In this document: positions 7,234 to 46,323 of the stretch, piece after piece | How the letters are laid out: each line of letters begins with the position of its first letter | Position numbering within the stretch: the first letter of the stretch is position 1 | From: Bryobacteraceae bacterium | Lineage (GTDB): Bacteria; Acidobacteriota; Terriglobia; Bryobacterales; Bryobacteraceae | Assembly: GCA_030039005.1 (NCBI GenBank) | Contig: JASHQT010000400.1 | Location: 1 to 48,994, forward strand | Length of the DNA: 48,994 bases | Direction: 5' to 3' | Translations under genes and position numbers: made by a program | The notes under the pieces: generated by a model | Database searches by the model: none | The model's input: the letters and a program-made list of their open reading frames with translations, nothing else | What the model was told of the DNA's origin: nothing

Positions 7234-7249
7234 ACGAGGCGCTTACGCG

Positions 7250-7444: not shown

Positions 7445-7475
7445 TGGTTCCTCCTTTCTTTAGTAGTGTTGTGAT

Positions 7476-7808: not shown

Positions 7809-7811
7809 TGC

Positions 7812-9723: not shown

Positions 9724-10457
9724 ATCCAGATTTTCCGCAATGGGTTACGCCTAGCCCAGCTACCGGCGCCAATCTCCGCATCGTCTGCCTACCGTTCGCG
9801 GGCGGGGGAGCTTCGATGTTCCATCCCTGGCGGTCAGCGAAGAACATCCAAATTTGCGCAGTCGAACTGCCGGGCCGGGAAGGGCGCGTCGCCGAAGAGC
9901 CACCGCGCCATCTGCGGACGCTGGCGCACGAACTGGCGTCTGCGCTGGAACCTTTGTTTCACTGTCCTTACGCGCTGTTCGGACACAGCCTCGGCGGACT
10001 TGTATCGTTTGAACTGGCACGCGAACTTCGAAGACGGGCTAAACCGGCGCCGATTCGGTTTTTTGCCTCGGCATGCCGCGCACCTCAATTGCCCAGCCGG
10101 AGGAAACCGATTTGCGGCCTGAACGATTCGCTCTTTCTCGAGCAAGTTACGCGCGCCGGAGGAATCCCCAAGGAAATTGCTGGCAACCCGGAGGTGATGA
10201 AGTTAATACTTCCCGCGTTGCGGGCGGACCACGAGATGTTCGAGAGCTACGAATACGCCCCCGAACCACCGTTCGCGTTTCCAATCACTTCGCTCGGCGG
10301 AAGTCAAGACGGCCAGGTGATTTCCGGAGATCTGGTCGCATGGTCGTCTCAGACCACAGGACAATTCCGCCTGCGCATGCTTCCGGGAGATCATTTCTTT
10401 CTGCGCTCGACGCCTGAGCGCGTCATCCAAATCGTGCAAGAAGAATTGGGGTATTAG
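9717..10457 (+). CDS. Type II thioesterase for NRPS/PKS line
   Basis: The start is ATG 9717, overlapping the methyltransferase stop. The 246-residue protein is an alpha/beta hydrolase of the GrsT/SrfAD type: LPFAGGGASMF near 25-35, VELPGREGR near 49-57, nucleophile Ser91 in FGHSLGG, and the late GDHFFL with the catalytic His. Type II thioesterases free mis-primed or stalled phosphopantetheine arms. Because none of the downstream synthetases ends in a thioesterase domain, this enzyme might also take part in product release, which would be unusual. The stop overlaps the stop of the convergent gene at 10454 by 4 bp. Confidence 0.9.
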   Translation: MVNPDFPQWVTPSPATGANLRIVCLPFAGGGASMFHPWRSAKNIQICAVELPGREGRVAEEPPRHLRTLAHELASALEPLFHCPYALFGHSLGGLVSFELARELRRRAKPAPIRFFASACRAPQLPSRRKPICGLNDSLFLEQVTRAGGIPKEIAGNPEVMKLILPALRADHEMFESYEYAPEPPFAFPITSLGGSQDGQVISGDLVAWSSQTTGQFRLRMLPGDHFFLRSTPERVIQIVQEELGY

Positions 10458-11545: not shown

Positions 11546-14500
11546 ATGAGCGATAACGTCGAGGTACAAGTGAATCGACTCCCGGCGTCCGATCAGCGCC
11601 GCCAGTTGCTTTCGCGCCTCATGCAAAGGCAAGCTGCGGCCAATCGGACGGCCCCGATGTCATTCGCTCAAGAGAGGCTGTGGTTTCTCGAACAGTTGAC
11701 CAACGTGCCCTCCATGTACACCATGGATAGCCCGCTGCGCCTCCGCTTCGCCGTGGATCATGGAATTTTGCAGCGCTGCCTGAATGAGATCGTGCGGCGC
11801 CATGAGGTGCTGCGTTCCACCTTCGTGGCCGCCAACGGGGTTCCCGTGCAGATCACCACGGCATCGGTGAACGTCGAACTGCCGTTGATCGACCTGGGTG
11901 AAAAACGACCGGAGATACAGGACGCCGAGGCCCAGAGGATCGCGGCGGAGGACTACAACACGCCCTTCGATCTTCGCACCGGTCCCCTGCTGCGGGTCAA
12001 GCTGTTGCGCCTGGAGGACAACGACCATATCTTGCTGCTTACGATGCATCACATCGTCTGCGACGGCTGGTCGTTGAGCGTATTCTTCCAGGAACTCAAC
12101 GCTCTATACGCCGCTTACTCCGCGGGGATGCCTTCCCCCTTGCCCGAACTGCCAATCCAATACGCCGATTTTTCCCGTTGGCAGCGCAAGTTTCTGGAAG
12201 GCGAAGTCCGTGGACTGCAGGTCGAGTACTGGAAACGGCAACTGGCCGGCATCCCTGCACTGGACCTCCCAGCCGACCGCTTGCGGCCTCCGCAACCCTC
12301 CTTCCGTGGATCTGGCGTGCCCGTGCGGCCACAGCCGAAGACGATCGCCCGCCTTCGAGCACTTTCCGACGAATGCAACGCGACGCTTTTCATGGTGCTG
12401 TTGGCAGCTTTCGAAACTCTGTTGTGCCGTTACTCCGGTCAGGAGGACATCGTGGTTGGTTCGCCCGTTGCGGGCCGGAACCACGGCGACACGGAAGGCC
12501 TGATCGGATTCTTCGTGAATTCCCTTGTCTTGCGGACCAGCTTAGCGGGGGACCCCACGTTCCGGGAGTTGGTGGATCGCGTCCGCGAGACAGCGATTGG
12601 CGCATATGCGCATCAGGACTTGCCATTTGAACTGCTCGTGGACGAACTGCATCCGGAGCGGGACGCCGGCCGCAATCCGCTGTTCCAAGTGATGTTCCAG
12701 TTGCTGCTTTATCCCGACGCCAGCGCCCCCGGGCCGGATGGCCGGCCGGAGACGCCGCCGGTGCTCACCGCGACTTCCAAATTTGACCTGGCGCTGACGC
12801 TCTACGATTCTGGCGGCGGAGTCTCGGGCGTCCTGGAATTCTCCCGGGATCTGTTCGATGAGCCCAGGATCGCGCGGATGGCAAACCACTACGAAACGCT
12901 CCTCGATTCGATTGCCGGCGATCCGGGCCGGCGCATCTCGGAGTTGAATCTGCTCACCGCGTCCGAACTACGACAGATGCTCGGCGATTGGCTGGTGACC
13001 GAGGCGCCCTTTCCCAGGGACGGCGGAGTACTCCAGGCGTTCGAGCAAAATGTCGCTGATCGTCCGGATGCGCCCGCGATTCGCGCCGCTGGCGATACGC
13101 TCTCCTATCGCCAGCTCAATCTACAGGCTGAACGGCTGGCGGGCGTCCTGCGGGATCGTGGCGTGACCTTGGACGCGGTGGTTGCAATCCAGCTCCCGCG
13201 GTCACCGGATATGATCGCTGCCGCGCTCGCCGCTCTCAAGACCGGAGCGGTGTATCTGCTCTTGGACCCGGAACTCCCCGACGAACGGCTGAGGGTGATT
13301 CTGGAGGACTCGAACGCGGCAGTCCTGGTGTGCGATCGGGATTTCGAATGCGCGTTTCCTTTAGTGAATCCCCTTGCGGAGGGGACGTGCGCAAGCGTAA
13401 AGGTTCCTTACCGCGAGGACGCGATTGCGTACCTGATCTACACCTCCGGCTCCACAGGTAAGCCCAAAGGAGTGGAGATCCCTCATCGTGGTCTCAGTAA
13501 TCTGATCGCCTGGCACAATCGCGCCTTCGCGGTTACACCGGAAAGCCGGGGCGCCCAATTCGCTAGTCCCGGATTCGACGCCGCCGCCTGGGAGATCTGG
13601 CCGTATCTGGCGGCCGGCGCGAGCGTCGAATTCGTTCCCGAGGATATCCGCTTCGCTCCGGCGCGGCTTCCGGAATGGCTCTGCGCCCGGAAGATCACGC
13701 ATAGTTTCGTTCCGACTCCCATTCTCGACGCCGTAACGCGTGAACCCTGGCCGCAAGAGTCCAGCTTGCGGTTCCTATTCACTGGCGGGGATAAGCTGCT
13801 GCGCGGCGCCCGGCCCGGGCTACCGTTCCGCGTCTTCAATCAATACGGGCCGACCGAGAATAGCGTGGTGACGACCTCCGGCCCGGTTCCCGAGGACGCG
13901 GGCGACGGTGCTCCGCCTTCCATCGGACGCGCCATCTCGAACGTGGAACTTTTTGTGATGGACCGCCATGGGCATCCGGCGCCCATCGGCATCCCGGGGG
14001 AGCTGTGGATCGGCGGCGCAGGCCTGGCGCGGGGATATCGGAATCGGCCGGAAGAAATCTCCGAACGGTTTACGCCGCATCCGATCCGAGCGGGCGAGAG
14101 GGTGTACCGCACCGGAGACTTGGTGCGCTACCGCACGGACGGGAATCTGGAATTCCTGGCCAGGATGGACCGGCAGGTGAAGATTCGCGGATTCCGCGTC
14201 GAGTTGGAAGAAATCGAGGCTGTGCTTTCGAGAATGCCGGAGGTGCGAGGGGCCTGTGTGATCGTGAGCGGTGAAGGGCCCGAGGCGCGCATGATCGCTT
14301 ACCTGGCCGCGCCCGCCGTAGACGACGCATGGCTGGCAGATCAGATACGGAAGCAATGCCGCGCCAAACTACCCCCCTATATGATCCCGTCCGACTTTGT
14401 GCGCTTGGACGCCTTTCTCTTAACTCCCAACGGCAAAGTGGATCGCGCAAGACTACCCCGGCCGAAGCGTTCTCCGGATCGAGTTTACGAGGCGCCACGG

Positions 14501-14785
14501 AGCGAGATCGAAGAGACCATCTTGGCGATTTGGCGGGAGGAGTTGCATCTCGAACGGGTCGGGATCGATGACAATTTTTTCGATGTGGGAGGAAACTCCC
14601 TGACGCTCGTCCGAATCCACCAGCGCCTGGAAGGCGAGGCGCGCAGAGCAGTTTCGGTGGTGGAATTGTTCCACTATCCGACCATTCGGAGTCTGGCCGC
14701 GTTCCTCGGTGAGCGCGAGAGCCAGCCGTCGGCTGTCGAAAAGGCGCGCGAGCGCGCGGCGCGGCGACGGGAGTTGGGGCGATGA
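11546..14785 (+). CDS. NRPS module, C-A-PCP, leucine-like code
   Basis: Residues 38 to about 470 are a condensation domain with HHIVCDG at 168-174. An adenylation domain follows, with YTSGSTGKPKG near 632-642, NQYGPTE near 765-771, YRTGDLVRY, the A8 motif KIRGFRVE, and PNGKVDR. The carrier domain has Ser1018 in DVGGNSL. My alignment to GrsA reads the ten-residue code as D-A-W-F-F-G-Q-V-V-K, eight of ten identical to the published Leu code DAWFLGNVVK. Starting with a C domain and no loading module, it must accept an acyl or aminoacyl group from elsewhere, as lipo-initiated synthetases do. The C-terminal Arg-rich helix may dock to the PKS. Its stop overlaps the PKS start (ATGA). Confidence 0.95.
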   Translation: MSDNVEVQVNRLPASDQRRQLLSRLMQRQAAANRTAPMSFAQERLWFLEQLTNVPSMYTMDSPLRLRFAVDHGILQRCLNEIVRRHEVLRSTFVAANGVPVQITTASVNVELPLIDLGEKRPEIQDAEAQRIAAEDYNTPFDLRTGPLLRVKLLRLEDNDHILLLTMHHIVCDGWSLSVFFQELNALYAAYSAGMPSPLPELPIQYADFSRWQRKFLEGEVRGLQVEYWKRQLAGIPALDLPADRLRPPQPSFRGSGVPVRPQPKTIARLRALSDECNATLFMVLLAAFETLLCRYSGQEDIVVGSPVAGRNHGDTEGLIGFFVNSLVLRTSLAGDPTFRELVDRVRETAIGAYAHQDLPFELLVDELHPERDAGRNPLFQVMFQLLLYPDASAPGPDGRPETPPVLTATSKFDLALTLYDSGGGVSGVLEFSRDLFDEPRIARMANHYETLLDSIAGDPGRRISELNLLTASELRQMLGDWLVTEAPFPRDGGVLQAFEQNVADRPDAPAIRAAGDTLSYRQLNLQAERLAGVLRDRGVTLDAVVAIQLPRSPDMIAAALAALKTGAVYLLLDPELPDERLRVILEDSNAAVLVCDRDFECAFPLVNPLAEGTCASVKVPYREDAIAYLIYTSGSTGKPKGVEIPHRGLSNLIAWHNRAFAVTPESRGAQFASPGFDAAAWEIWPYLAAGASVEFVPEDIRFAPARLPEWLCARKITHSFVPTPILDAVTREPWPQESSLRFLFTGGDKLLRGARPGLPFRVFNQYGPTENSVVTTSGPVPEDAGDGAPPSIGRAISNVELFVMDRHGHPAPIGIPGELWIGGAGLARGYRNRPEEISERFTPHPIRAGERVYRTGDLVRYRTDGNLEFLARMDRQVKIRGFRVELEEIEAVLSRMPEVRGACVIVSGEGPEARMIAYLAAPAVDDAWLADQIRKQCRAKLPPYMIPSDFVRLDAFLLTPNGKVDRARLPRPKRSPDRVYEAPRSEIEETILAIWREELHLERVGIDDNFFDVGGNSLTLVRIHQRLEGEARRAVSVVELFHYPTIRSLAAFLGERESQPSAVEKARERAARRRELGR

Positions 14786-17700
14786 CAGAGACGGCCAATT
14801 CCATCGCGATTATCGGGATGAGCGGACGCTGGCCTGGCGCGCGCGACATTGAGGAATTCTGGAATAACCTGTGCGGCGGCGTCGAGTCGGTGCGCGCTTT
14901 CACCGAAGAAGAGATGTTAGCCGACGGCGTCGACCCTGCCATACTCAATCAGCCTGGCTTCGTGAATGCGGGCGCGGCGCTGGCGGACGCGCTCTGGTTC
15001 GATGCGCCGTTCTTCGGCATTAGCCATCGCGAGGCCCAGGGCCTGGATCCACAACATCGCGTTTTCCTGGAATGCGCCTGGCATGCGCTGGAAGACGCAG
15101 GCTACGTTCCGGAAGCGGTGGACGGCCCGATCGGAATCTTCGCCGGGTCCAGCACCAGCTCCTACTTACACCGGGTTTGCGCCAGCCGGGAATTAGTGGC
15201 TGCCATCGGCGCTTACCAGGTGTCGATCGGCAACGACAAGGATCACCTCACTACCTACGCTGCTTACAAACTTAACCTGACCGGCCCTGCGGTGACCGTG
15301 CAGACGGCCTGTTCAACGTCTCTGGTGGCGGTAGCGATGGCCTGCCAGGCGCTGCTGAATCAGGAGTGCGACATGGCTCTGGCGGGAGGTGTATCCGTGC
15401 GCATCCCCCAGCATTGCGGCTACTTCTACGAAAAAGGCGGCATCCTCTCGCCCGATGGTCATTGCCGCGTATTCGATGCCGAAGCTCACGGTACGGTGGG
15501 TGGGAACGGAGCCGGCATCGTCGTCCTGAAGCGACTCGAAGATGCACTGCGGGATCGGGACCGCGTACGGGCAGTGATCCTGGGGTCGGCCATCAATAAC
15601 GACGGTTCGATGAAGGTAGGCTACACTGCACCCAGCGTCGAGGGGCAGGCGGCCGTTATCGCGACCGCTCTCGCGCTGGCGGGCGTCGATCCCGAGAGCG
15701 TCGGTTACCTGGAGGCCCACGGCACGGGTACGCCACTGGGAGATCCGATCGAGATTGCCAGTCTCACGCAGGCGTTTGGAACCAAGAAAGGCGGCTTCTG
15801 CGCGATCGGGTCCGTGAAGAGCAACATCGGACATCTCGACGCCGCGGCGGGAGTCACCGGCCTGATTAAAGCGGCACTCTGTGTGGAACGCGCTGTATTG
15901 CCTCCGTCGTTGCATTTTCATACGCCGAATCCTTCGATTGATTTCGCATCCACTCCATTTAAGGTGCAGGACCGCGTCTCGGCCTGGAACGCCAACCGCC
16001 GGCGGGCGGGGGTGAACGCGTTCGGTATCGGCGGCACCAACGCTCACACCGTTCTGGAGCAGGCGCCGGAGACTGAGCCCTCCGGCCTGTCGCGCCCGTA
16101 TCAATTGCTGCTGCTCTCGGCGCGCTGTCAGACGGCACTCGACCGGCTGACCGACAATTTCGCCGCGCATTGGCAGAACGATGTCTCAAACAGTTTGGCC
16201 GACTTGGCCTTCACTCTGGCAGTTGGACGTTGCGCTCATCCCTATCGCCGATTTCTGGTCTGCCGGGCCAGCGATGCCGAAGGGGCTGCGGGGGCGTTTT
16301 CCAGTTCCGTGCTGGCCTCGGAACAAAGAGCCGCGGTGTACTTGTTCCCCGGGCAGGGATCGCAGCACGCCGGCATGGGCCGCGGGCTATATGAGAGGGA
16401 GCCGGTCTTCCGCGCCGAGTTCGACCGCTGCGCTGATTTGCTGGAACCGATTATGGGGGCGGATCTTCGCCGGGCGATCATGGCGGGCGGCGCCACCGAC
16501 GACGAATTGCGCCAGACGTGGCTTGCACAGCCGGCTCTGTTCGCTGTTGAGTACTCACTGGCCCGTCTGTTGATGCATTGGGGCATTCAGCCGGCGGCCA
16601 TGATCGGCCACAGCCTGGGTGAATACGTGGCGGCTTGTCTGGCCGGCGTGATGTCGCTCGAGGATGCTCTCATCGTAGTGGCGGCGCGTGGCATGCTCAT
16701 GCAGGACACCGCTCCCGGCGCCATGTTGGCGACTTCCTTAGCGGAGGACGAAGTGCGCTCCCTGCTGCCGCAAGACTTGGAAATCGCCTCGGTGAATGGT
16801 CCCGCGCTGACCGTCGTGTCGGGTGAGGAATCCGCCATCGCCGAGTTCGAAGCGAGGCTTGCGTGGAAGGGAGCGGCGGGAATCCGGCTGCGCACCTCGC
16901 ACGCCTTCCACTCTTTCACGATGGACCCTGTACTGGAACAGTTCCGCACTGTGCTGGAATCCGTTCGTCTGAAAGCGCCGACGCTTCCCTACATCGAAAC
17001 CCGAAGCGGCGGATGGCAGTCCGCGGCTGCCGGGGAGTTCGCCTATTGGGTGGATCATCTGCGGAAACCGGTTCGTTTCGGTGACGGCTGCCGCACGCTC
17101 TGCGCGGCGGGGCACCGGGCATTTATTGAGGTTGGGCCCGGATCGGCGCTCTCCAAAATGCTCCAGCCCTACCTCCGCGAAGCTGGAGGTGGCATCGTGG
17201 CGCAAACCGGCACTGATCAGGAATCGCTTCTCGACGCGCTTGGACAGCTTTGGTCTCACGGCGTCTCCGTCGACTGGAATCAATACTATTCACGCGAGAA
17301 CCGCCGGAGGGTGTCCGCGCCTTTGTATCCCTTCGAGCGGCAACGCTACGACGTAGAGCTAATCGGGGAGACGGCGCCGCGTGGCGACTGGTTCGCGAAA
17401 ATTCCAGACTTCCACGCATGGTTTTACGAGCCTTCCTGGAAAGCGGTTGCCGGTGTGGGAGGGCAGCCCGGCGACATGGCTGGGCCTGCGCTCGTGTTTC
17501 TCGACGATGCCGGATTAGGCGCCGCTGTGGCGGCAAAACTGGCGGATGTGACAACGGTCGCGCGCGCCGCGCAATTCCGAAGGGTCGGCGAGCACGCCTT
17601 CGAGATTCGCCCCGAAGAACCAGCGGACTACGAAGCGCTCTTCAACGCTTTGGCCGCGGATGGAAAAATCCCTGGAGATATTTTGCACTTTTGGAATGTC

Positions 17701-19206
17701 GACCCCAGCCCCGGCGATCCCGGCGCCGTGTTTTATCCGCTGCTGCATCTGGCTCAAGCCCTGGCGTTCCACCTCGCTCCGGCTCGCGTGAACGTGATTT
17801 CCGCCGGCGCCTGGGCCGTCACGGGAGAGGAGGCCATCGAGCCGGCGAAGGCCTTGCTTGCCGGGCCGTGTCGTGTCGCGCCCGCCGAGAGGATTGACAC
17901 ACGCTGGCGCAACATCGATATCGCGCTGCACCATCGGGAAGTTGCCATCGCACAGATCCTTGCGGAATACCGCGCCGATTCCCTGGACCCGATCGTCGCC
18001 TACCGGGGACGGCGGCGCTGGATCGAGAGCGCGGAACCATTGCCGACGGCCCCCGCTCCGCCGGCGCCACTGCTCCACACTGAGGGAGTCTATCTGATTA
18101 CGGGTGGCCTGGGCGGCATCGGTTTTGCGCTCGCCGAGTTTCTGGCGCGAGATTACCGGGCGCGCCTGGTGTTGGTCAGCCGTTCCGGCCTTCGAGAAGG
18201 CTCGCCGATGGGCCCCGCGATCGCGGCCATGGAGCAAGCCGGCGCAACAGTCTTGGTCTGCCGCGCCGACGTCGCGTGCGCGGACCAGATGAGCGCCGTA
18301 TTAGCCCAAACCAGAGCGCGGTTCGGCCACCTGGATGGCGTGATCCACGCGGCGGGAGTTGCCGGCGGCGGTCTCATCCAATTGAAAACTCGCCAAGCTG
18401 CCGACGCGGTTCTCTTACCTAAGGTCCAGGGCACGATGACACTCCACGCGCTGCTCGAAGATTCCCCGCTCGATTTCTTTGTGAGCTTCTCCTCCCTCAC
18501 CTCACTGGCAGGAGGATTCGGACAAGTGGATTATTGTTCTGCCAATGCCTTCCAGGACGCCTTCGCCCAGCGGGAGTCGGCGCGGCGCAATCGCCTCACC
18601 ACCACCATCAACTGGGATGCGTGGTCCGAGGTCGGCATGGCGGTCAACACCGAGATCCCGGTCGAAATGGAAGCGCATCGGGCGGAGGTTCTGAAGAACG
18701 CAATCCTGCCCGCCGAAGGAGTGCAGGCTTTTCGCCGGGCGCTCGACTTGCGCCTGCCGCAGATTTGCATCTCCACCTACAGCCTGCCGCTACGGCTCGC
18801 GCACGCCCGCTCGATGGCCCACGTCGAGGCGCAACCCGCGGCGCCCTCCGCGCAACGTCATCCGCGCCCCGAAATGGAGACTCCATTCGTAGCCGCGGGC
18901 ACGGAGATGGAAAAGCTGGTGGAGAAGATCTGGCAAGACCTGTTCGGTCTGGAGCGAGTTGGGATAACGGATAACTTCTTCAGCCTGGGTGGGCACTCGC
19001 TGCTCGCCACCCGGATGGTCGCGCGAGTGCGCGCGGTGCTCGGTCTGGAGATCAGCGTCCGGACCGTCTTTGAGACACCGACGATTGAGCAACTCGCGAG
19101 CGTCCTGGAACGCATGGCCGATGAATCCCTCGAACTGTCGCACATGATCGCAATGGTCGAACAAATGAGCGACGAGCAGGTCAGAACGCAACTGGGGCAG
19201 AACTAG
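14782..19206 (+). CDS. Type I PKS module, KS-AT-KR-ACP, malonyl-type
   Basis: The ketosynthase starts at residue 7; active Cys177 lies in TACSTS, with the catalytic His in EAHGTGTPLGDPIE and KSNIGHLDAAAG. The acyltransferase runs from FPGQGSQ to about 830, with Ser611 in GHSLGE and HAFH at 707-710, the pattern of malonyl-CoA selective domains. A ketoreductase structural subdomain (about 870-1060) precedes the KR with TGGLGGIG from 1107 and catalytic Tyr1251 in VDYCSANAF. The KR has neither the LDD motif of B-type nor the Trp of A-type domains, so hydroxyl stereochemistry is open. The carrier Ser1406 is in LGGHSLL. There is no DH or ER, so the beta-hydroxyl should remain. The tail MSDEQVRTQL may be a docking element. 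Confidence 0.95.
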   Translation: MTETANSIAIIGMSGRWPGARDIEEFWNNLCGGVESVRAFTEEEMLADGVDPAILNQPGFVNAGAALADALWFDAPFFGISHREAQGLDPQHRVFLECAWHALEDAGYVPEAVDGPIGIFAGSSTSSYLHRVCASRELVAAIGAYQVSIGNDKDHLTTYAAYKLNLTGPAVTVQTACSTSLVAVAMACQALLNQECDMALAGGVSVRIPQHCGYFYEKGGILSPDGHCRVFDAEAHGTVGGNGAGIVVLKRLEDALRDRDRVRAVILGSAINNDGSMKVGYTAPSVEGQAAVIATALALAGVDPESVGYLEAHGTGTPLGDPIEIASLTQAFGTKKGGFCAIGSVKSNIGHLDAAAGVTGLIKAALCVERAVLPPSLHFHTPNPSIDFASTPFKVQDRVSAWNANRRRAGVNAFGIGGTNAHTVLEQAPETEPSGLSRPYQLLLLSARCQTALDRLTDNFAAHWQNDVSNSLADLAFTLAVGRCAHPYRRFLVCRASDAEGAAGAFSSSVLASEQRAAVYLFPGQGSQHAGMGRGLYEREPVFRAEFDRCADLLEPIMGADLRRAIMAGGATDDELRQTWLAQPALFAVEYSLARLLMHWGIQPAAMIGHSLGEYVAACLAGVMSLEDALIVVAARGMLMQDTAPGAMLATSLAEDEVRSLLPQDLEIASVNGPALTVVSGEESAIAEFEARLAWKGAAGIRLRTSHAFHSFTMDPVLEQFRTVLESVRLKAPTLPYIETRSGGWQSAAAGEFAYWVDHLRKPVRFGDGCRTLCAAGHRAFIEVGPGSALSKMLQPYLREAGGGIVAQTGTDQESLLDALGQLWSHGVSVDWNQYYSRENRRRVSAPLYPFERQRYDVELIGETAPRGDWFAKIPDFHAWFYEPSWKAVAGVGGQPGDMAGPALVFLDDAGLGAAVAAKLADVTTVARAAQFRRVGEHAFEIRPEEPADYEALFNALAADGKIPGDILHFWNVDPSPGDPGAVFYPLLHLAQALAFHLAPARVNVISAGAWAVTGEEAIEPAKALLAGPCRVAPAERIDTRWRNIDIALHHREVAIAQILAEYRADSLDPIVAYRGRRRWIESAEPLPTAPAPPAPLLHTEGVYLITGGLGGIGFALAEFLARDYRARLVLVSRSGLREGSPMGPAIAAMEQAGATVLVCRADVACADQMSAVLAQTRARFGHLDGVIHAAGVAGGGLIQLKTRQAADAVLLPKVQGTMTLHALLEDSPLDFFVSFSSLTSLAGGFGQVDYCSANAFQDAFAQRESARRNRLTTTINWDAWSEVGMAVNTEIPVEMEAHRAEVLKNAILPAEGVQAFRRALDLRLPQICISTYSLPLRLAHARSMAHVEAQPAAPSAQRHPRPEMETPFVAAGTEMEKLVEKIWQDLFGLERVGITDNFFSLGGHSLLATRMVARVRAVLGLEISVRTVFETPTIEQLASVLERMADESLELSHMIAMVEQMSDEQVRTQLGQN

Positions 19207-22200
19207 TGTCGCCAAAATCAATGGAATCGGCCACTCAGAGCGTAGAACAGAAGCGGGCGCTGTTAGCCAGGCTGCTGGAAACGAGCAGTTCGCAGCGGCC
19301 TGCCGTTCAGCGCCGCGGATCGGTTTTTCAGGCGCCCCTCTCTTTTGCGCAGCAAAGGCTTTGGTTCTTCGAGCAGTTGATGCCTGGCACCTCCGTTTAC
19401 AACATGATGATCCCGCTGCGCCTGGACATCGCGGTATCGGCGCACACCCTGCTCGATGCCATCAACGAGATTGTTGCGCGGCATGAAGCGCTCCGCACCA
19501 CATTTCGCGCGACCGACGGCAAACCGGCGCAATTCGTCGCGCCCGAACTCAAGATTGAGATGCCGCGTCACGATCTGCGATATCTGCCGCACGAAGAACA
19601 GCAAGCCGAAAGCACGCGGATCTTCCTCGCCGCCTCTCAGGCGCCCTACGATTTGACCACCGGGCCACTCTTCCGGGCGCACTTGCTGCAATACGGCGAT
19701 GAAGACTACTTGTTGATGCTGTGCATGCATCACATCGTCTCGGATGCATGGTCGACCACGGTGCTGATCGAGGAGCTGGACGCATTGTACGACGCTTTCT
19801 CGCTAGGACAACCCTCCCCGCTACCGCCGCTTCCGATCCAATATCCGGACTTCGCGGTGTGGCAGCGCGAATGGCTCAGCGGCGAGGTCCTCGACCGTCA
19901 ACTTAGCTACTGGAAGAAGCAACTGGACGGCATCGTGCCGATCGATCTGCCATGCGACTATTCTCGTCCGGCGAGCATGACCTTTCACGGAAAGTACGTC
20001 CCGATCGGCGCCGGCGCCGCCCTATTGACGCGCCTGCGCGCGCTGAGCGCCTTGCAGGACTGTACGCTCTTCATGACCTTGTTGGCCGCCTTCCAGGTCT
20101 TCCTGTTTCGCCATACCGGTCAAGCGGACGTGGTGGTGGGAACGCCGGTGGCGAATCGCAATCACGCCGACGTCGAGAAGCTGATCGGTTTCTTCGTCAA
20201 TTCTCTGGTGATGCGCACGAGCCTGGACGGAAATCCGACGTTCCGCGAGGTTCTCGCCCGAGTTCGTGAGACCGCTCTCGGGGCGTACGCCCACCTCGAC
20301 ATCCCTTTTGAAATGCTAGTGGAGAACCTGCAACCGGAACGCGACTTCACGCGCAATCCAATTTTCCAAGTCTTGTTTCAGGTCCAGACGATGAGGTCCA
20401 ATCGCGAGATGGATACTCCACCGGGAGGGCAGCTTCACAATGCCGTCTTCGATCTGAACGTCAATCTTTACGAGCAGCCGAACGCGCTGGTTGGCAGATT
20501 CGAGTTTAACGCCGCACTATTCGATGAACCCACCGCCCAGAGGATGGCGGCGCGCTTCGCCGCGCTGCTGGAGGCGATCGTCGAAGACCCGGACCGCCGC
20601 ATCGGCGAGTTGCCGATGGTTCCGGAACCCGAACGTTGTCAAATAGAGCAGTGGAACGCGGCAGCCGCGGCGGAAATCGACGCGACCCCTCGCACCATCC
20701 ACGAATGGTTTGAGCGGCAGGCATCCAGCACTCCGGACGCTCCCGCGGTCTCGGCCGGCGGAGCTTCGATCACTTATGCCGAGCTGAACCAGCGCGCGAA
20801 CGATCTGGCTCAACGCTTGCGAGAACTGGGCGTCACCCCAGGGGACCGTGTCGCCGTTCGCCTGCCGCGCTCCGCCAAAACGATTGTCGCGATCCTGGGC
20901 GCGTTGAAGGCGGGAGCAGCCTATGTCCCGCTGGATCCCGATTATCCCGCCGACCGTCTGCGATTCATGCTTGAAGATTGCGGCGCGCGCGTTGTGGTAA
21001 CCCCGGATGGAGTGAAAGTGCTGCGCGCGTCCGCCGATCCCGCTCCGGCTGAGACGGCCTACATTCTCTACACCTCCGGCTCAACCGGAACGCCAAAAGG
21101 AGTGTGCGTACCTCACCGTAGCCTCGTTTACTCGACTTGGGCGCGCCTACAATACTACGCCGACCCGGTGGAACGCTACTTGCTCCTTTCTCCATTCTCC
21201 TTCGACAGTTCGGTGGCCGGCATTTTCTGGACCCTGTGCAGCGGTGGATGTCTGGAAATCGCCACCAACGAGGAAATGGAAGATATTCCAGAGCTAGCCT
21301 TGCGGATCGAGCGCCAGAACATCACGCATCTTCTGGCCGTCCCTTCGCTTTATGCCCGTCTGCTGGACTGGTTTGAAGTCTCCGCACTGCGGCTCAAAAC
21401 CGCTATCGTCGCTGGTGAGCGGTGTCTCCCCACGCTGGTCGCTTATCACTTCGAACGTTTGCCGGACGTCCCTCTGTACAACGAGTACGGACCCACCGAG
21501 GCTACGGTCTGGTCTACAGTTCATCGTTGTGGTCCGGAAGATAAGACCATCGTTCCTATCGGACGCCCCATCCCTGGGGCGCGGATTTACATTGTGGATC
21601 GCCTCGGCCGGCCTGTTCCGATCGGAGTTCCAGGTGAAATGTGGATTGGCGGCCCGGGCGTAGCGCATGGATATTGGAATCGTCCGGATCTCACCGGGGA
21701 GCGCTTCATTCCGGATCCATTCCAGGAAGGGGCATCGAGGCTGTATCGCAGCGGCGATATGGCCAAATACCGCAACGACGGCAACATCGTCTTCCTCGGA
21801 AGAGCCGACAATCAGGTCAAGGTGCGCGGCTATCGCATCGAACTGGGAGAAATCGAAAGCGCGCTACTGGCTCACCCCTCGGTCGCCGAGTGCGCGGCGT
21901 TCACGTGGAACTTGGAGGACGATACGCGGCTGGCAGTTTGGGCCGTGGCCGGGGGCGAACGCGTGCCAAGCAGCGAATTGACCGCATTCTTGCGGCGCCG
22001 GCTGCCGAGCTACATGGCGCCTGCGTCGATCACCTGGGTGGACGCTCTGCCGCGCAATGCCAACGGAAAGCTGGATCGCGCGGCGTTGGCCGCCAATCCA
22101 CAGCGGCTGGATGAGGAGGTGTATGTCGCGCCGCGAACTCCGGTGGAGAAAACCCTAGCTGGTCTGTACCAAGAAGTGCTCGGGATCCCGGAGCCTGGGA

Positions 22201-22418: not shown

Positions 22419-25400
22419 TGAGCACCACAGCGAGCCGCATGGCGGCTCTTTCACCCGAGAAAAAGAAGCTGCTGGAGCAACGGCTCAAAGGACTGTCGAC
22501 CGCCCCGCCCAGCATTCCCAAGAGACCGGAAGGGGGCGCGCCCGAGCTTTCTTTCGCTCAACAACGACTCTGGTTTCTCGACCAGTTGGTGCCCGGCAAC
22601 CCGTTCTACAACATATTCTCGCCTCTGCCGATTCAATTCGCCGTGAACGTGGATATCTTGCGCCGCTGCTTGAACGAAATCGTCAGACGGCATGAGGCGC
22701 TGCGAACGACGTTTACCTCCCTGGAAGGCAAGCCGGTTCAGGTCATCGCGCCTGCTCTGGATTTGGCAATGCCGTTGATCGACCTGACGTCCATGCCCGC
22801 TGCGACCCGAGACGCCGAAGCACTTCGTCTGGCGACGGAAGAAGCGCGCAAGCCTTTCGATCTGGCAGCCGGACCGCTGATCCGCTGCAGTCTGCTGCGC
22901 CTGACCGCACAGTATCACCTGCTCCTGCTCTCGATGCATCATATCGTCTCCGACGGGTGGTCCATGGGAATCCTGTTACAGGAGTTGGGCGCACTTTACA
23001 TGAGCTTCGCGGCTGGGCAGCCGTCGACGTTGCCGGAATTACCCATTCAGTATGCGGACTTCGCGGTGTGGCAAAGGGGCTGGCTCAAGGGCGCCGTTCT
23101 CGAGAATCAATTGTCGTATTGGCGCCGCCAACTGAAGGATATTCCCAACCTGGACATCCACGCGGACCGGCCGCGTCCAGTGATGCCGACTTTTCGCGGA
23201 TCCTATTTTCCGCTGCAATTTCCGTCCAGCTTGATTGCCTCGCTCAAGCGGCTCTCCAGCGAGCATGACGCCACTCTGTTCATGACTATGCTCGCGGGCT
23301 TTCAATCGTTGTTGCACCATTACACGGGCCAGGACGACATCGTGGTCGGTTCTCCGGTCGCAAATCGCAACCGCAGCGAGATTGAAGGCTTGATCGGCTT
23401 CTTTGTCAACTCCCTGATCATGCGCGCCGATTTCCGCGGCGACCCGACGTTTGAGGCGCTCCTCGTTCGAGTACGGGAGACTGCGCTCGAAGCATACGCC
23501 AATCAGGATCTGCCCTTCGAGATTCTGGTGGAGGAGTTGCACTCCGATCGCGACCTGAGCCGGAATCCGCTATTCCAGGTGATTTTTCAACTCATGAGCG
23601 CTCCCACTGGGGCCAGTTCCAGTAGTTCTCCGGAAACCGCCTCCAAAGCGGCCTCCTCGGCGTCGAGCAGTGCGTCTTCGGGCGGCGGGGCGGTAAATAT
23701 CCAGACTGGCACCGCGAAGTTCGACCTCAATGTCACTCTCTGGGAGACCCCCGAGGGCGTCGCCGGGGGAATCGAATTCAATACCGACATCTTCGATTTA
23801 TCGACCGTCGCTCGCATGGCGACGCAATATACTTCGCTTTTGCATGGGATTGTCGCGCATCCGAACCATCATATTTCGGAACTGCCTGTCCTGACTCCGC
23901 GGGAACAGCGGCAGATCCTCGTGGACTGGAACGCCACCGAAACCGATTTCCCGCGCGATCGCGGGCTCGGGTCTATCTTCGAAGATCAAGTAGCCGCGCA
24001 CCCCAACGCTCCGGCTGTTGCCTACGGAGACACCACGTTGACTTACGCGGAGCTGAATCGGCGGGCGAACCGGGTCGCGAACCATCTACGCTCCGCGGGC
24101 ATAGGACGGGAAAACCGCGTCGGCATTTGCATGGAGCGTTGCCTGGACATGATCGTTGCGGTAGTGGGTGTGGTGAAATCTGGCGGCGCTTACGTTCCGC
24201 TGGACACCGACTATCCTCGCGATCGGCTGGCGTTCATGATCGCGGATACCGAATTGGGAGCCTTGATCACCCACCAGAAGGAATTGGAAAAGTTGGCCGA
24301 AAATTCCCTGCCTGTGCTCTGCATGGATCGCGATCAGGAGGCGCTGGAGAGGAGTCCGGACCACAATCCGGCGCTCGAGACCAGCGGCGACGATCTGGCA
24401 TACGTCATGTTTACCTCGGGTTCTACGGGCATTCCCAAAGGCGTCTGTGTATTGGGGAAGGGCATCAGCCGGCTGGTCATTAACACGGACTATGTTCGGC
24501 TGGGGTGTAACGATCGCATCGCACAGGTGTCGAGTTTCTCGTTTGACGCGGCGACTTTCGAGATCTGGGGCGCCCTGCTGAACGGCGGCCTGTTGATCGG
24601 CGTCGCCAAGGATGTTCTGCTTTCGCCCCCCGATTTCGCGGAAGCGATCGAAGGGAATCGGATCACGACGATGTTTCTGACCGGGGCCTTCTTTAACCAT
24701 ATGGCGCGAGAATTTCCCCAGGCGTTCCGGGGCCTGCGCAATTTGTTGGTGGGTGGTGAAGCCTTGGAACCGAAGTGGATCCGCCGCGTGTTGGATGCGG
24801 GACCGCCGCAGCGCTTGTTGAACGGCTACGGGCCTACGGAAACCACCACCTTCGCGCTGTGCCATTTGATCCACAACGTCCCAGCCGGCGCCAGCAACAT
24901 CCCCATCGGCCGGCCAATCGGCAACACCATCGCCTACATCCTGAACAAGTATGGCCAGCCCGCGCCGGTCGGCGTCCCGGGAGAACTCTACATCGGTGGG
25001 CCGGGAGTGGCTCGCGGTTACTGGAACCGTCCGGAATTGACCAAGGAACGCTTTGTTCCCAACCCGTTCCGGGGGGCCGGCGAGGAGACCCTTTACCGCA
25101 CTGGGGACCGCTGCCGCTATCTGCCCGATGGCAGCGTCCAATTCCTTTCGCGTCTCGATCAACAAGTGAAGATCCGCGGCTTCCGCATCGAGCTTGGCGA
25201 GATTGAAGCTTGCTTAGCCTTGCATCCAGCGGTGAAACACGCTGTGGTGATTGCTCGCGAGGATATTCCCGGCGATCGCCGTTTGGTCGCCTACATTGTG
25301 CAAAGCGGCCAGGCCGCGCCCGGCGAAAACACGCAACTCACGCAGTGGCAAAAGGTCTACGACGAGATGATTTACCAATCGCTCGATCAGCATACGTCGA

Positions 25401-27067
25401 CCTATCAAAACGCCCTATTCAACATCCAGGGATGGGTCAGCAGCTACACGCAGGAACCCATCGCGGCGGAGGCCATGCAGGAGCAAGTCGACCAGACAGT
25501 GAACCGCGTTCTGGCTCTCAAGCCGAAGCGTGTTCTGGAGATCGGATGCGGGACCGGCCTCCTGCTTTCGCGCATCGCGCCACATTGCGATTCTTACCTG
25601 GGGACCGATTTCTCTCCGGCCGCCTTGCAATACTTGCAGCGCGAGATTAGCAGCGGCGGACACGGCTACTCGAACGTGGCGCTGCTCGAACGCGGCGCCG
25701 ACGATTTCTCGGATTTCGAAGACGGATCGTTCGACGTCGTGATTCTCAATTCTGTCGTCCAGTATTTTCCCAGCCCGGAATACTTGGCCCAGACGCTGCG
25801 CGGCGCGGTACGGGTCATTTCTCCAGGTGGATCGATTTTCCTCGGCGACCTGCGAAACCATTCGCTGCTGGAGGTTTTTCACACCTCGTTGGCGTTGTAC
25901 GCCCGCGCTGCCGGCGCTCCCGACGACGACGTCCGGACCAAGGCCGCGCAAGGCGTGGATGAAGAGCAGGAGCTGGTGGTAGATCCGGCGTTCTTCCGGG
26001 CATTACAAGCGGAGCTGCCGGAGATTTCGCATGTCGAAGTGCGTCCTAAGCGCGGACGCCACCGGAACGAACTCACGCAGTTCCGCTATGATGCGCTCTT
26101 GCGGATCGGAGACCGGCGGGACCAGCCTGCGCCGGTAGAGTGGCTTCCGTGGGAAGCCATTTCGCGCGCCGCCGACGAAATCCGCTCCCGCCGGGAGCGC
26201 GGGGCTCCGGCGGTCTGCTTTGGCTATCGTGGAGTGCCTAACGAGCGGGTCGCGCGTGAAGTCCTCGCCGCCGCCAGGCTTCGCGGAGAATCCGCGGCGG
26301 TCGACGGTGCGGCCGATCCCGAAGATTTATACCTGCTCGGGGAGAGTCTGAATTGCAACGTGGATGTCCGTTGGGACAGCGGCAACGAAGAAGGCCGTTT
26401 CGACGTGGTCTTTCATTGGGGACCAGTATCTTATTCACTGGAACCGCTGCCCGCCGTTGCCAAGCCCCGGCACAAGCTGACCAACAATCCGGCGCAGGCG
26501 TTATTTCTCAAGAAGATCGTCCCGCAGCTCCGCGGATTTCTCGCGGGGCGTCTGCCGGACTACATGATGCCCTCGGCGTTCCTGTTGTTGGAAGAGCTGC
26601 CGCTCACATCCAACGGCAAAGTGGATCGAGCGGCGCTTCCCGCCGCCAGTCAAATGCGAGCGTTGTCAGAGACCGAATACCTGGCGCCGCGCAATGAGGT
26701 GGAGGAGAAACTCACCGCCATCTGGTCGGAGGTGTTGGGCATCTCGCACATCGGCATTCACGATAATTTCTTCACGCAGTTGGGCGGGCACTCTCTCACG
26801 GCCACGCAACTTGTCTCGCGAGTGCGCGAGAGGTTCGGCATCGAACTGCCCATTCGCACGCTGTTCGAAGGCCCGACCATCGCGCGCCTTGCCCAAGCGG
26901 TGGAGGCCTGCCTGAAAGATCCGGCTCAATCCGCGGGGCCCCGCATGACCAGAATCACCCGAATGGACGCTTCCATCGAGGAAACCGAAGTCGACGTCAG
27001 CCAACTGTCCGACGATCAGGTGGAAGCGATGCTGGCCAAGTTGTTGACGGCCGAGGCCGGTCAATGA
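22418..27067 (+). CDS. NRPS module, C-A(N-methyltransferase)-PCP, Val/Ile-like code
   Basis: The C domain has HHIVSDG at 174-180. The A domain has FTSGSTGIPKG and NGYGPTE. Between A8 (KIRGFRIELGE) and A10 (SNGKVDR) about 430 residues are inserted, containing a methyltransferase with VLEIGCGTG at 1039-1047; this is the standard position of N-methylating domains, so the activated amino acid should be N-methylated before condensation. The code I read is D-A-F-F-L-G-G-T-F-K, eight of ten identical both to the published Val code DAFWIGGTFK and to the Ile code DAFFYGITFK. PCP Ser1459 is in LGGHSLT. An acidic tail of about 60 residues with QLSDDQVEAMLAKLL looks like a C-terminal docking motif. A Ser/Ala-rich linker lies near residue 400. 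Confidence 0.95.
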   Translation: MSTTASRMAALSPEKKKLLEQRLKGLSTAPPSIPKRPEGGAPELSFAQQRLWFLDQLVPGNPFYNIFSPLPIQFAVNVDILRRCLNEIVRRHEALRTTFTSLEGKPVQVIAPALDLAMPLIDLTSMPAATRDAEALRLATEEARKPFDLAAGPLIRCSLLRLTAQYHLLLLSMHHIVSDGWSMGILLQELGALYMSFAAGQPSTLPELPIQYADFAVWQRGWLKGAVLENQLSYWRRQLKDIPNLDIHADRPRPVMPTFRGSYFPLQFPSSLIASLKRLSSEHDATLFMTMLAGFQSLLHHYTGQDDIVVGSPVANRNRSEIEGLIGFFVNSLIMRADFRGDPTFEALLVRVRETALEAYANQDLPFEILVEELHSDRDLSRNPLFQVIFQLMSAPTGASSSSSPETASKAASSASSSASSGGGAVNIQTGTAKFDLNVTLWETPEGVAGGIEFNTDIFDLSTVARMATQYTSLLHGIVAHPNHHISELPVLTPREQRQILVDWNATETDFPRDRGLGSIFEDQVAAHPNAPAVAYGDTTLTYAELNRRANRVANHLRSAGIGRENRVGICMERCLDMIVAVVGVVKSGGAYVPLDTDYPRDRLAFMIADTELGALITHQKELEKLAENSLPVLCMDRDQEALERSPDHNPALETSGDDLAYVMFTSGSTGIPKGVCVLGKGISRLVINTDYVRLGCNDRIAQVSSFSFDAATFEIWGALLNGGLLIGVAKDVLLSPPDFAEAIEGNRITTMFLTGAFFNHMAREFPQAFRGLRNLLVGGEALEPKWIRRVLDAGPPQRLLNGYGPTETTTFALCHLIHNVPAGASNIPIGRPIGNTIAYILNKYGQPAPVGVPGELYIGGPGVARGYWNRPELTKERFVPNPFRGAGEETLYRTGDRCRYLPDGSVQFLSRLDQQVKIRGFRIELGEIEACLALHPAVKHAVVIAREDIPGDRRLVAYIVQSGQAAPGENTQLTQWQKVYDEMIYQSLDQHTSTYQNALFNIQGWVSSYTQEPIAAEAMQEQVDQTVNRVLALKPKRVLEIGCGTGLLLSRIAPHCDSYLGTDFSPAALQYLQREISSGGHGYSNVALLERGADDFSDFEDGSFDVVILNSVVQYFPSPEYLAQTLRGAVRVISPGGSIFLGDLRNHSLLEVFHTSLALYARAAGAPDDDVRTKAAQGVDEEQELVVDPAFFRALQAELPEISHVEVRPKRGRHRNELTQFRYDALLRIGDRRDQPAPVEWLPWEAISRAADEIRSRRERGAPAVCFGYRGVPNERVAREVLAAARLRGESAAVDGAADPEDLYLLGESLNCNVDVRWDSGNEEGRFDVVFHWGPVSYSLEPLPAVAKPRHKLTNNPAQALFLKKIVPQLRGFLAGRLPDYMMPSAFLLLEELPLTSNGKVDRAALPAASQMRALSETEYLAPRNEVEEKLTAIWSEVLGISHIGIHDNFFTQLGGHSLTATQLVSRVRERFGIELPIRTLFEGPTIARLAQAVEACLKDPAQSAGPRMTRITRMDASIEETEVDVSQLSDDQVEAMLAKLLTAEAGQ

Positions 27068-30000
27068 GTTCGGCTCCGAGCAGCGTTGGCAGACTCTCGG
27101 CGGCCGAGAAGCGCGCGCTCCTCGGCGAGCTGCTCGATAAGAAGCGCGCCGCCCGGCAGCCAGTCGTCTCCGAACCCAAACTGCGCCCAGTCTCTTTCTC
27201 GCAACGCCGCTTGTGGTTTCTCGATCAGTTGTCGCCCGGCACATCGTTTTACAACGTCGACTGCGTGCTCCCTTTGCCCGACCTGGGGATGAACGAAGAG
27301 GCGTTCGAGCGGGCCGTCCAGGAAATCGTTCGCCGCCATGAATCGCTGCGCACCGTGTTTGAAGCGGTGGACGGCGAGCCGATGCAAGTGATTCAGCCTG
27401 CGTCGCGAATCACCATGGAACGAATCGATTTGCGCCACCTTTCTCAGGCCGACCAGGATGCGGCAACGTTGCGCTGTGCTAACGCCATGGCGTCGCGTCC
27501 GTTCGATCTAGCGGTCGGACCGCTCATGCGCATCGCACTGGTGCATCGCAGCGACGGTCACATGATGATTCTGATCATGCATCACATCATCTGCGACGGC
27601 TGGTCCATGGGCGTATTCTTCAGGGAGTTCGTGGAGATTTACGGGGCATACCTGTCGGGCCGAGAGTCGCCGCTCGGCGAATTGACGATCCAGTATTCGG
27701 ATTTCGCAGCCTGGCAAAGGCAGCTGTTGCAAGGAGCAGGCTTGGAGAAACTGCTCCACTATTGGAAAAACAAGCTGGATGGCATTCCCCTACTGTATCT
27801 TCCCTGCGACCACACCCGCCCTCCCGTGCAGACGTTTCGCGGCGCGTCCCGCAGGATCCAGATACCCAAGAGCGTTCTGGATCCACTCAAGGCAGTCGCC
27901 AAAAGTGGAGGCGCCACTCTTTTTATGGTCTTACTCACGGCCTTCAAGATCCTCTTAAGCCGGTATGCAGGACAAGACGACATCGCGGTGGGAACCTACA
28001 TCGCGAATCGTAATCGCGCCGAGGTCGAACAACTAATCGGCTTCTTTGTGAACAGCTTGATCATGCGCACCGACCTGAGCGGCAACCCGCCGTTCCGGGA
28101 AGCGTTAGCGCGCGTCAAGGAGACGGCGTTGGGCGCGTACGCTCACCAAGACATGCCTTTTGAAACCTTGGTCGAGGTGTTGCAGCCGGACCGCGATCTC
28201 AGCCGGAATCCTCTGTTCCAGGTAATCTTTCAGCTTTTCAATGCCCCGAATGTGGAAATGGGGTCGGAAGAGTCTCAGCCCAATGCACCCCGAGTCGAGA
28301 AACGCAGCTCGACTTTCGATCTGGGTTTCAACGTGTGGGAAACGCCGGATGGACTGCGAGGCGCGATCGAATATTCGACCGACCTGTTCGAGCCGGAGAC
28401 CATTGAACGAATGGCCGGCCACTATAACAACCTGCTGGAGAGCATTATTCTCGATCCCTGGACTCCGATCCAGCAGTTGCCCATGCTCTCGGAGCAGGAA
28501 ATGCATCGGGCAGTCCACGAATGGAACGCTACCAGCGCCGCGCTGGATACCGGGCTTTCGGTGGTAGATCAGTTTCGAGCTCGCGTCGCAGAGCACCCCG
28601 AGAAGGTCGCGCTCATCTCGCGGGAACACCGGATCACGTACCTGGAATTGGCCGCTCGAGCCGGCGAACTCGCACGAAGCTTAGAAAGTCGCGGCGCCGG
28701 ACCCGGCTGCTTGATCGGAATCTGCCTGGAGCGCTCGGTCGCGGCAGTGGTCGCGATGCTCGCCGTTTTTGAAACCGGCGCGGCCTACGTGCCGATGGAC
28801 CCGAGCCATCCTGAGACCCGCCGAAAGTACATGGTGGAGGACGCCGGAATCTTCGGCGTGATCGACTCCTCCGGTTTCAGTGTCTGCCCTCGGGAACCTG
28901 CTTCGCACGCCGGCCTAGCCTACGTGATCTACACCTCAGGATCAACTGGACCGCCGAAAGGCGTCGCGGTGGAGCACCGCCAAATTTTAAACCGCCTGCG
29001 ATGGATGTGGCGTGAGTATCCGTTCGCACCGGACGAAGTGGGATGCCTGAAAACATCCCTTACCTTCGTGGACTCGATTTGGGAGGCGCTTGGCGCGCTT
29101 TTGCAGGGAATCGCGACGGTGGTCGTCGATGAGCGCACCTCCGGGAATCCGCTGGAGTTGCTGCGAGTGCTGGCCGAACATCGGGTGACACGGTTGTGGC
29201 TGGTTCCGGCTTTGTTACGCGAGATGGTCCACGTTTTGGAGTCGGATGAGGAGTTACGCCGCAAACTGTTCGCATTGCGTTTTTGGGTCAGCAGCGGAGA
29301 AGCGCTCTCTCCACAACTGGGACGTCAGTTCGCCCGGCTGATGCCTGCTGCGACCCTCTACAATCTCTACGGGACTTCGGAAGTCTGGGACGCGACCTGG
29401 CAAGATCCGCGCCGCGACAAGACCTGGCCGGAACGCTGCTCTATTGGCCGGCCGATCGATGGCGTCGAGGCGTGGGTGCTGGATCGAGCCAACCGGCCCT
29501 CGCCGGTCGGAGCACCCGGCGAACTCGTGATCGGAGGCGCCGGCTTGGCGCGTGGATACCTGAACCGGCCGGAGTTAACGAACCAGAAATTCATGCCGCA
29601 TCCATTTAAGCGAGAAGGCTTAGTGTTTCGTACCGGAGACGCGGCGCGTTATCTTCCCGACGGGCAGATCGAATATCTCGGCCGTCTGGACCGCCAGGTG
29701 AAGATTCGTGGGTTCCGGATTGAGCCGCGTGAGATTGAGGACGCGGTCATGGAGCACCCCGCAGTCCAAGAAGCCGCCGTGATCCCAGTAATGGGACCTG
29801 CGGGCTTGGAACTGGCCGCTTATGTAGCGCTGCTGCCCGACGAAACTGTGTCCGAGCCGGAGTTGATCGATCATCTCAGTAGCCGCCTGCCCTCGCACAT
29901 GATTCCAGCAAGCTGGACATTCGTGGCGAAGATCCCGAAAACTACCAGCGGCAAGGTGAATCATTTGGCGTTGCCCGCGCCTGGACGCTCCCTAGGCGAG

Positions 30001-30288
30001 CGAGGTCGTCCGTTTCTGGCTCCGCGGACGCCCGCGGAAGAAACTGCCGTCGAACTTTACCAAGAACTCCTCGGACTAGAAACGGTCAGCGCCGACGCGC
30101 ATTTCTTCCGGGAACTCGGCGGACACTCGCTTCTGGCTACGCGGCTAGCCTCGCGAATACGAAATCGGCTGGGCATCGAAATTCCACTGCTAGCACTCTT
30201 CGAAGCCCCGACGCCAGCTCTCTTGGCGCAAGTGCTGGATACCTACCAGAAGCCCGCCGGCGACGAGGAAAGCGCTAGCGCCAGCTAA
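27064..30288 (+). CDS. NRPS module, C-A-PCP, beta-alanine-type code, no release domain
   Basis: The start overlaps the previous stop (ATGA). The C domain has HHIICDG at 173-179. The A domain has YTSGSTGPPKG and an atypical A4 region: FVDSIWEAL places Val669 where nearly all alpha-amino-acid domains have the Asp that binds the alpha-amino group, followed by Asp670. A5 reads NLYGTSEVWD. The code begins V-D-W-W-V-S-L, like published beta-alanine codes (VDxVISx). PCP Ser1022 is in LGGHSLL, and the protein ends about 50 residues later in a Ser/Ala-rich tail. As the last synthetase in the line it should carry a thioesterase, reductase or terminal condensation domain, and it has none. The region downstream on this strand holds no further module. 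Confidence 0.95.
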   Translation: MSSAPSSVGRLSAAEKRALLGELLDKKRAARQPVVSEPKLRPVSFSQRRLWFLDQLSPGTSFYNVDCVLPLPDLGMNEEAFERAVQEIVRRHESLRTVFEAVDGEPMQVIQPASRITMERIDLRHLSQADQDAATLRCANAMASRPFDLAVGPLMRIALVHRSDGHMMILIMHHIICDGWSMGVFFREFVEIYGAYLSGRESPLGELTIQYSDFAAWQRQLLQGAGLEKLLHYWKNKLDGIPLLYLPCDHTRPPVQTFRGASRRIQIPKSVLDPLKAVAKSGGATLFMVLLTAFKILLSRYAGQDDIAVGTYIANRNRAEVEQLIGFFVNSLIMRTDLSGNPPFREALARVKETALGAYAHQDMPFETLVEVLQPDRDLSRNPLFQVIFQLFNAPNVEMGSEESQPNAPRVEKRSSTFDLGFNVWETPDGLRGAIEYSTDLFEPETIERMAGHYNNLLESIILDPWTPIQQLPMLSEQEMHRAVHEWNATSAALDTGLSVVDQFRARVAEHPEKVALISREHRITYLELAARAGELARSLESRGAGPGCLIGICLERSVAAVVAMLAVFETGAAYVPMDPSHPETRRKYMVEDAGIFGVIDSSGFSVCPREPASHAGLAYVIYTSGSTGPPKGVAVEHRQILNRLRWMWREYPFAPDEVGCLKTSLTFVDSIWEALGALLQGIATVVVDERTSGNPLELLRVLAEHRVTRLWLVPALLREMVHVLESDEELRRKLFALRFWVSSGEALSPQLGRQFARLMPAATLYNLYGTSEVWDATWQDPRRDKTWPERCSIGRPIDGVEAWVLDRANRPSPVGAPGELVIGGAGLARGYLNRPELTNQKFMPHPFKREGLVFRTGDAARYLPDGQIEYLGRLDRQVKIRGFRIEPREIEDAVMEHPAVQEAAVIPVMGPAGLELAAYVALLPDETVSEPELIDHLSSRLPSHMIPASWTFVAKIPKTTSGKVNHLALPAPGRSLGERGRPFLAPRTPAEETAVELYQELLGLETVSADAHFFRELGGHSLLATRLASRIRNRLGIEIPLLALFEAPTPALLAQVLDTYQKPAGDEESASAS

Positions 30289-35389: not shown

Positions 35390-35398
35390 TTCGTCCAC

Positions 35399-46320: not shown

Positions 46321-46323
46321 GCT

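What the first reader, a model, noticed from the sequence alone, without database searches (positions are those of the whole stretch)
11546..30288. Hybrid assembly line predicted to make a statine-containing peptide
The first NRPS has a Leu-like code and feeds a PKS module with KS, malonyl-type AT and KR but no DH. Leu plus one reduced malonate unit gives 4-amino-3-hydroxy-6-methylheptanoic acid, statine, the transition-state mimic in pepstatin-type aspartic protease inhibitors. The remaining modules would add an unknown residue, an N-methyl Val/Ile and a beta-amino acid. Genes are collinear and overlap by 1-4 bp. Domain order is seen directly; the Leu call and the product are inference.
Basis: partly seen in the sequence, partly recalled or inferred. 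Interest (0 to 1): 0.8.

Follow-up and report, generated by a model that had tools for sequence, protein, structure and literature searches.

The report
Soil-bacterium line for statine-like peptide
A soil bacterium, probably an acidobacterium, carries an intact, ordinary-looking five-gene assembly line that should build a small peptide from a statine-like unit, histidine, an N-methylated valine or isoleucine and a beta-amino acid; the product has not been seen and its protease-inhibitor role is a guess.

Summary
Five collinear genes overlapping by 1-4 bp encode C-A-T / KS-AT-KR-ACP / C-A-T / C-A-nMT-T / C-A-T. The PKS keeps its KS, malonyl-type AT, KR and ACP residues and has no DH. The first A domain reads DAWFFGQVVK, 8 of 10 letters of the common Leu code; all 8 single-module relatives listed match it at 7-9 of 10. 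A Leu-derived gamma-amino-beta-hydroxy acid (statine) is the best reading, by inference. Predicted core: statine-His-N-Me-Val/Ile-beta-amino acid. The pepstatin comparison fails in mechanism: pepstatin's statines come from an F420H2-dependent reductase after assembly. This line follows the KR route proposed for didemnin. Protease inhibition is unsupported: statine would come first, the N-cap is unknown, and no terminal TE exists. The contig is probably Bryobacteraceae; relatives named Candidatus Angelobacter exist. New member of a known kind.

The parts
11546..14785 (+). N1, NRPS module C-A-T (C about 11645-12979, A about 13040-14455, T about 14513-14707); A code DAWFFGQVVK, Leu-like
14782..19206 (+). 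PKS module: KS with its extension (about 14797-16260), AT (16336-17184, GHSLG and HAFH, malonyl type), KR prefix (17416-17652), KR (18085-18630), ACP (18919-19101); no DH
19206..22418 (+). N2, C-A-T (C 19332-20645 with HHIVSDA, A about 20709-22088, T 22152-22340); A code DSALIAEVWK, a published His code
22418..27067 (+). N3, C-A-nMT-T (C 22544-23920, A from about 23978, MT about 25526-25861 inserted before the A10-like stretch, T 26705-26902); A code DAFFLGGTFK, Val/Ile-like
27064..30288 (+). N4, C-A-T (C 27187-28503, A about 28573-29973, T 30049-30234); A code begins VDW and lacks Asp235, beta-amino-acid type; no TE follows
9717..10457 (+). stand-alone thioesterase; closest solved structure RifR (154 bits), a type II enzyme. 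Probable start 9717, inside the longer open frame 9480-10457; overlaps the methyltransferase gene by 7 bp
8962..9723 (+). stand-alone class I SAM methyltransferase; best solved-structure match MitM (57 bits, weak); target unknown; membership of the cluster inferred from position only

Best explanation
The five genes form one collinear NRPS-PKS line. N1 loads an aliphatic amino acid, most likely Leu. The PKS adds one malonyl unit and its KR reduces the ketone; with no DH the alcohol stays, giving a 4-amino-3-hydroxy acid, statine if the amino acid is Leu. N2 adds His, N3 adds Val or Ile and N-methylates it, N4 adds a beta-amino acid, most simply beta-alanine. The stand-alone TE probably edits misprimed carriers and may also release the product. 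Shown: genes, domains, catalytic residues, specificity codes. Inferred: substrates, order of use, stereochemistry, N-terminal cap, release, product. The unacylated linear core with Val and beta-Ala would be C23H40N6O6, [M+H]+ 497.308, and with Ile 511.324.
For: Domain anatomy. KS Cys-His-His, AT GHSxG and KR Ser/Tyr/Asn kept in 20 of 20 relatives aligned (20 picked from the 119 non-self hits listed); HAFH in 19 of 20. N1 codes of all 8 single-module hits among the 120 listed: DAWFLGQVVK three times, DAYFVGQVVK, DAWFFGMVVK, DAWFLGAVVK, DALFLGAVVK, DAWFLGMVVK, that is 7-9 of 10 letters of DAWFLGNVVK, five at 9. PMC12283262 names DAWFLGNVVK among the most common codes of its Leu/Ile/Val set, and two further papers give it as Leu (passages). 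DSALIAEVWK is a His code in PMC12283262. Of 139 background A domains with nine readable letters, 0 have the His code and 1 is one letter off. N1 and PKS hits list the same longest-contig length in three cases (106252, 25865 and 249844 bases), so the pair probably travels together; the contigs were not read.
Against: N1 itself differs from the common Leu code at two of ten positions, and one relative (P0243) at three; Leu, Ile and Val codes overlap. The His match rests on passages of one paper, whose tables were not available. C2, which must join the statine unit to His, has HHxxxDA. N1 starts with a C domain like C2-C4 (47-53% identical), which expects a donor that the window does not show. 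No TE on the last module. The codes of N2-N4 relatives were not checked. N3 matches the common Val and Ile codes at only 7 of 10 each, and N4 the recalled beta-Ala code at 6 of 10.
Confidence: 0.65

Rival explanations
1. Same line, but the PKS-extended residue is Ile- or Val-derived (isostatine or a homologue), not Leu-derived.
For: N1 has F299 and Q322 where the common Leu code has L and N; PMC12283262 reports codes shared among Leu, Ile and Val (passages). Isoleucine is activated in the didemnin case.
Against: W239, F278, V330 and V331 match the Leu code, and five of eight relatives match it at 9 of 10 letters.
Confidence: 0.2
2. The line is N-acylated or extended: C1 takes a fatty acyl or aminoacyl donor made elsewhere, so statine is internal and the product is a lipopeptide or a longer peptide. 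(Compatible with the best explanation for the core.)
For: A C domain heads N1 in the window and in all 8 single-module relatives listed, and C1 resembles C2-C4 (47-53%).
Against: No acyl-AMP ligase or further NRPS gene among the 28 ORFs scanned with Pfam. The contig ends 11.5 kb upstream of N1 and 18.7 kb downstream of N4, and no genome is held, so other loci cannot be excluded. No C-domain subtype classifier was run.
Confidence: 0.5
3. It is a pepstatin-like aspartic protease inhibitor.
For: Statine is the key residue of pepstatin (PMC12081711, Introduction read).
Against: Pepstatin has Val-Val before its central statine and makes statine by PepI, not by a KR. KR-type pairs of this kind also occur in the didemnin, burkholdac, hapalosin, thalassospiramide and nosperin clusters, whose activities are not pepstatin-type (recalled).
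Confidence: 0.1

Closest known systems
KR-type 3-OH-4-NH2 (statine-like) pairs: didemnin, thalassospiramide, hapalosin, burkholdac, nosperin
   Same: NRPS module paired with a PKS module holding a KR, proposed to make the 3-OH-4-NH2 unit (PMC12081711 Introduction)
   Different: Acidobacterial source; His and beta-amino-acid modules here. Those clusters were not aligned here, so finer differences are not tested.
Pepstatin pathway
   Same: Leu plus malonate origin of statine
   Different: Pepstatin: discrete, trans-acting and iterative NRPS/PKS genes, ketones reduced by F420H2-dependent PepI after assembly. Here: modular genes with a cis KR; no F420-type family found in the 28 ORFs scanned.
Candidatus Angelobacter NRPS-PKS clusters (soil Acidobacteria)
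   Same: N1 (56%) and PKS (60%) hits with this source name, both listed with a longest contig of 249844 bases
   Different: The window's flanking gene points to Bryobacteraceae. The authors of PMC9723581 report that no Ca. Angelobacter cluster was linked to a characterised MIBiG cluster in their network (passage).
Bleomycin assembly line (recalled; the paper search returned nothing)
   Same: Uses beta-alanine, histidine and a PKS-extended gamma-amino-beta-hydroxy acid
   Different: Different order and additional modules; no homology test was made
Corramycin (PMC10099666)
   Same: His module, beta-alanine-derived unit, PKS extension
   Different: 12 modules, FAAL start, the beta-alanine unit is the extended one, His module with MT and E domains (outline and passages)

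Membership tests
KR-type statine-forming NRPS-PKS pair | NRPS module for an aliphatic amino acid directly before a PKS module | tested here: met
   gene order, domains, code
KR-type statine-forming NRPS-PKS pair | Malonyl-type AT, intact KR, no DH | tested here: met
   (motif meanings recalled)
KR-type statine-forming NRPS-PKS pair | Leu selected by the A domain (statine proper) | tested here: inconclusive
   8 of 10 letters of the common Leu code; relatives 7-9 of 10; no assay
KR-type statine-forming NRPS-PKS pair | Product contains a 3-OH-4-NH2 acid | not testable with these tools
   no compound
Pepstatin-type pathway | F420H2-dependent reductase (PepI) gene in the cluster | tested here: not met
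   no such family in the Pfam tables of 28 window ORFs; the rest of the genome is not held
Pepstatin-type pathway | Discrete NRPS/PKS genes for Val-Val-Sta-Ala-Sta | tested here: not met
   full C-A-T and KS-AT-KR-ACP modules with other codes; iterative use as such is not testable here
Aspartic protease inhibitors | Inhibition of an aspartic protease | not testable with these tools
   no compound

The most novel reading that the evidence does not exclude
A conserved acidobacterial peptide family combining a KR-made statine, histidine, N-methyl Val/Ile and a beta-amino acid, a combination not seen in the listed results of three paper searches, whose imidazole, hydroxyl and terminal groups could chelate a metal ion in the manner of bleomycin's metal-binding half rather than inhibit a protease.
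Probability: 0.1. Interest if true: 0.65.

Novelty: new member of a known kind. Interest (0 to 1): 0.36.

Why it matters
PMC12081711 (Introduction) states that the KR route to statine-like units has not been experimentally verified; a compact, intact Leu-type NRPS plus PKS(KR) pair with close relatives is a clean system for testing it in vitro, beside the F420 route shown for pepstatin. The family probably comes from soil Acidobacteriota, where the clusters of at least one rich genus were not linked to characterised ones (PMC9723581 passage). Calling the second residue histidine turns a vague prediction into a defined mass and a testable structure.

Tried and rejected
No whole genome is held for the window, so other loci (acyl starter, exporter, PPTase) could not be sought. 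A scan of species genomes with the PKS gave two Verrucomicrobiota loci at 43%. A sample of 387 genomes of that phylum gave 22 with hits at E <= 1e-200, identities 43-55% in the rows listed; those loci were not read. A flanking gene matched 2 of 96 of these genomes, at 33%, which gives no support for that phylum. In plasmid records the top-ranked PKS match has 45.8% and all 1566 records lie under 60%. Corramycin was considered because of His, beta-Ala and a PKS and dropped on module order. AFC-BC11 was looked at for a beta-Ala code and proved a different system without C domains (passages). No paper with the recalled beta-Ala code VDWVISLADK was found; its first nine letters do occur in one database hit, P0265, whose substrate is unknown to me. 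The letters of N4 at 330/331 depend on the alignment: DA, TW. KR stereochemistry cannot be called: the LDD motif is absent (its meaning recalled). No C-domain tree was built; only BLAST neighbours were listed. The background for the codes is biased, being hits of an N1 search: 226 A-domain rows were aligned, 82 with a gap at a code position were dropped (none of these near the His code by the count), leaving 144, of which 4 are the window's, 1 is its own copy and 139 are background. Of the 131 background rows outside the 8 relatives, 15 lie within two letters of the nine-letter Leu code, so the Leu call is less specific than the His call.

Full report
Observation. The five genes and their overlaps are as described. 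Pfam and NCBIfam scans of eight proteins show C-A-T, KS-AT-KR-ACP, C-A-T, C-A-nMT-T and C-A-T, with a stand-alone methyltransferase and thioesterase upstream and a 4-hydroxybenzoate 3-monooxygenase-like gene on the other strand downstream. A minus-strand ORF (10454-10987) without a Pfam or NCBIfam match lies between the thioesterase and N1, so N1-N4 look like an operon of their own.

The PKS. KS Cys-His-His, AT GHSxG and KR Ser/Tyr/Asn are kept in 20 of 20 aligned relatives; the malonyl-type HAFH is kept in 19 of 20, P0043 having RAFH. The 20 were picked from the 119 non-self hits listed: 14 at 54-81% identity and 6 at 47-51%. No dehydratase family was found. One reduced malonate unit is the expected result.

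The amino acids. Codes were read by alignment. N1 DAWFFGQVVK agrees with DAWFLGNVVK at 8 of 10 positions. PMC12283262 names that code among the most common of its Leu/Ile/Val set, and PMC7524897 and PMC10744761 give it as Leu (passages). All 8 single-module relatives among the 120 hits listed match it at 7-9 of 10, five at 9. [quoted passage not shown] As a control, of 139 other A domains with nine readable letters 0 carry it and 1 differs by one letter; 82 rows with gaps were dropped. N3 DAFFLGGTFK matches the common Val and Ile codes of that paper at 7 of 10 each and holds an inserted methyltransferase with a SAM motif, so N-methylation of Val or Ile is likely. N4 lacks Asp235, which alpha-amino-acid domains conserve (passages), and matches the recalled beta-Ala code at 6 of 10.

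Start and release. C1 is 47-53% identical to C2-C4, and a C domain heads all 8 relatives. Either an unseen donor exists or the domain is idle. The thioesterase is closest to RifR; no TE follows N4. These are the two weakest points of the product prediction.

What it is not. Pepstatin's statines arise from PepI, an F420H2-dependent reductase acting after the assembly line. The authors contrast this with the KR route proposed for didemnin, with similar pairs in burkholdac, hapalosin, thalassospiramide and nosperin, and say that route has not been experimentally verified (PMC12081711). This cluster belongs with the KR route.

Source and distribution. The flanking spermidine-synthase protein has three listed hits that bear an organism name, all Bryobacteraceae, at 80, 71 and 70%, so the contig is probably from that acidobacterial family; closer hits (up to 87%) are unnamed. 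PKS and N1 hits named Candidatus Angelobacter exist. Three longest-contig lengths are shared between the two hit lists, which suggests, without proving, that the pair is conserved.

Verdict. An intact, uncharacterised member of a known kind. The statine reading stands at about 0.65-0.7, His at about 0.75, protease inhibition at about 0.1 (my judgement).

Noticed in passing
5731-8282, minus strand: Radical SAM/SPASM enzyme matching TIGR03913, GDL-motif peptide-associated maturase (873 bits, cut-off 591.75), beside three small same-strand ORFs (7250-7444, 7476-7808, 7812-8282, the last with nine Cys); possibly a RiPP-type cluster next to the NRPS. The small ORFs match no NCBIfam family at E 0.01.
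   Followed up: partly
36130-37095 (-) and 37568-38584 (+): Two metallo-beta-lactamase-fold proteins resembling subclass B3 but far below the family cut-off (126 and 101.5 bits against 240); not called as resistance genes.
   Followed up: partly
33521-35398 (-): 625-aa protein with a weak match to quinoprotein relay system zinc metallohydrolase 2 (52.5 bits, cut-off 280) and no Pfam match.
   Followed up: no
43983-47580 (-): Two 2-hydroxyglutaryl-CoA dehydratase/benzoyl-CoA reductase-like frames, one of them weak (51 bits, cut-off 448.6), and a family III CoA transferase; perhaps an acyl-CoA degradation cluster.
   Followed up: no
N2 C domain, 19332-20645: HHxxxDA in place of HHxxxDG in the domain that would join the statine unit to His; the variant occurs in 16 of 207 C domains of database hits.
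   Followed up: partly
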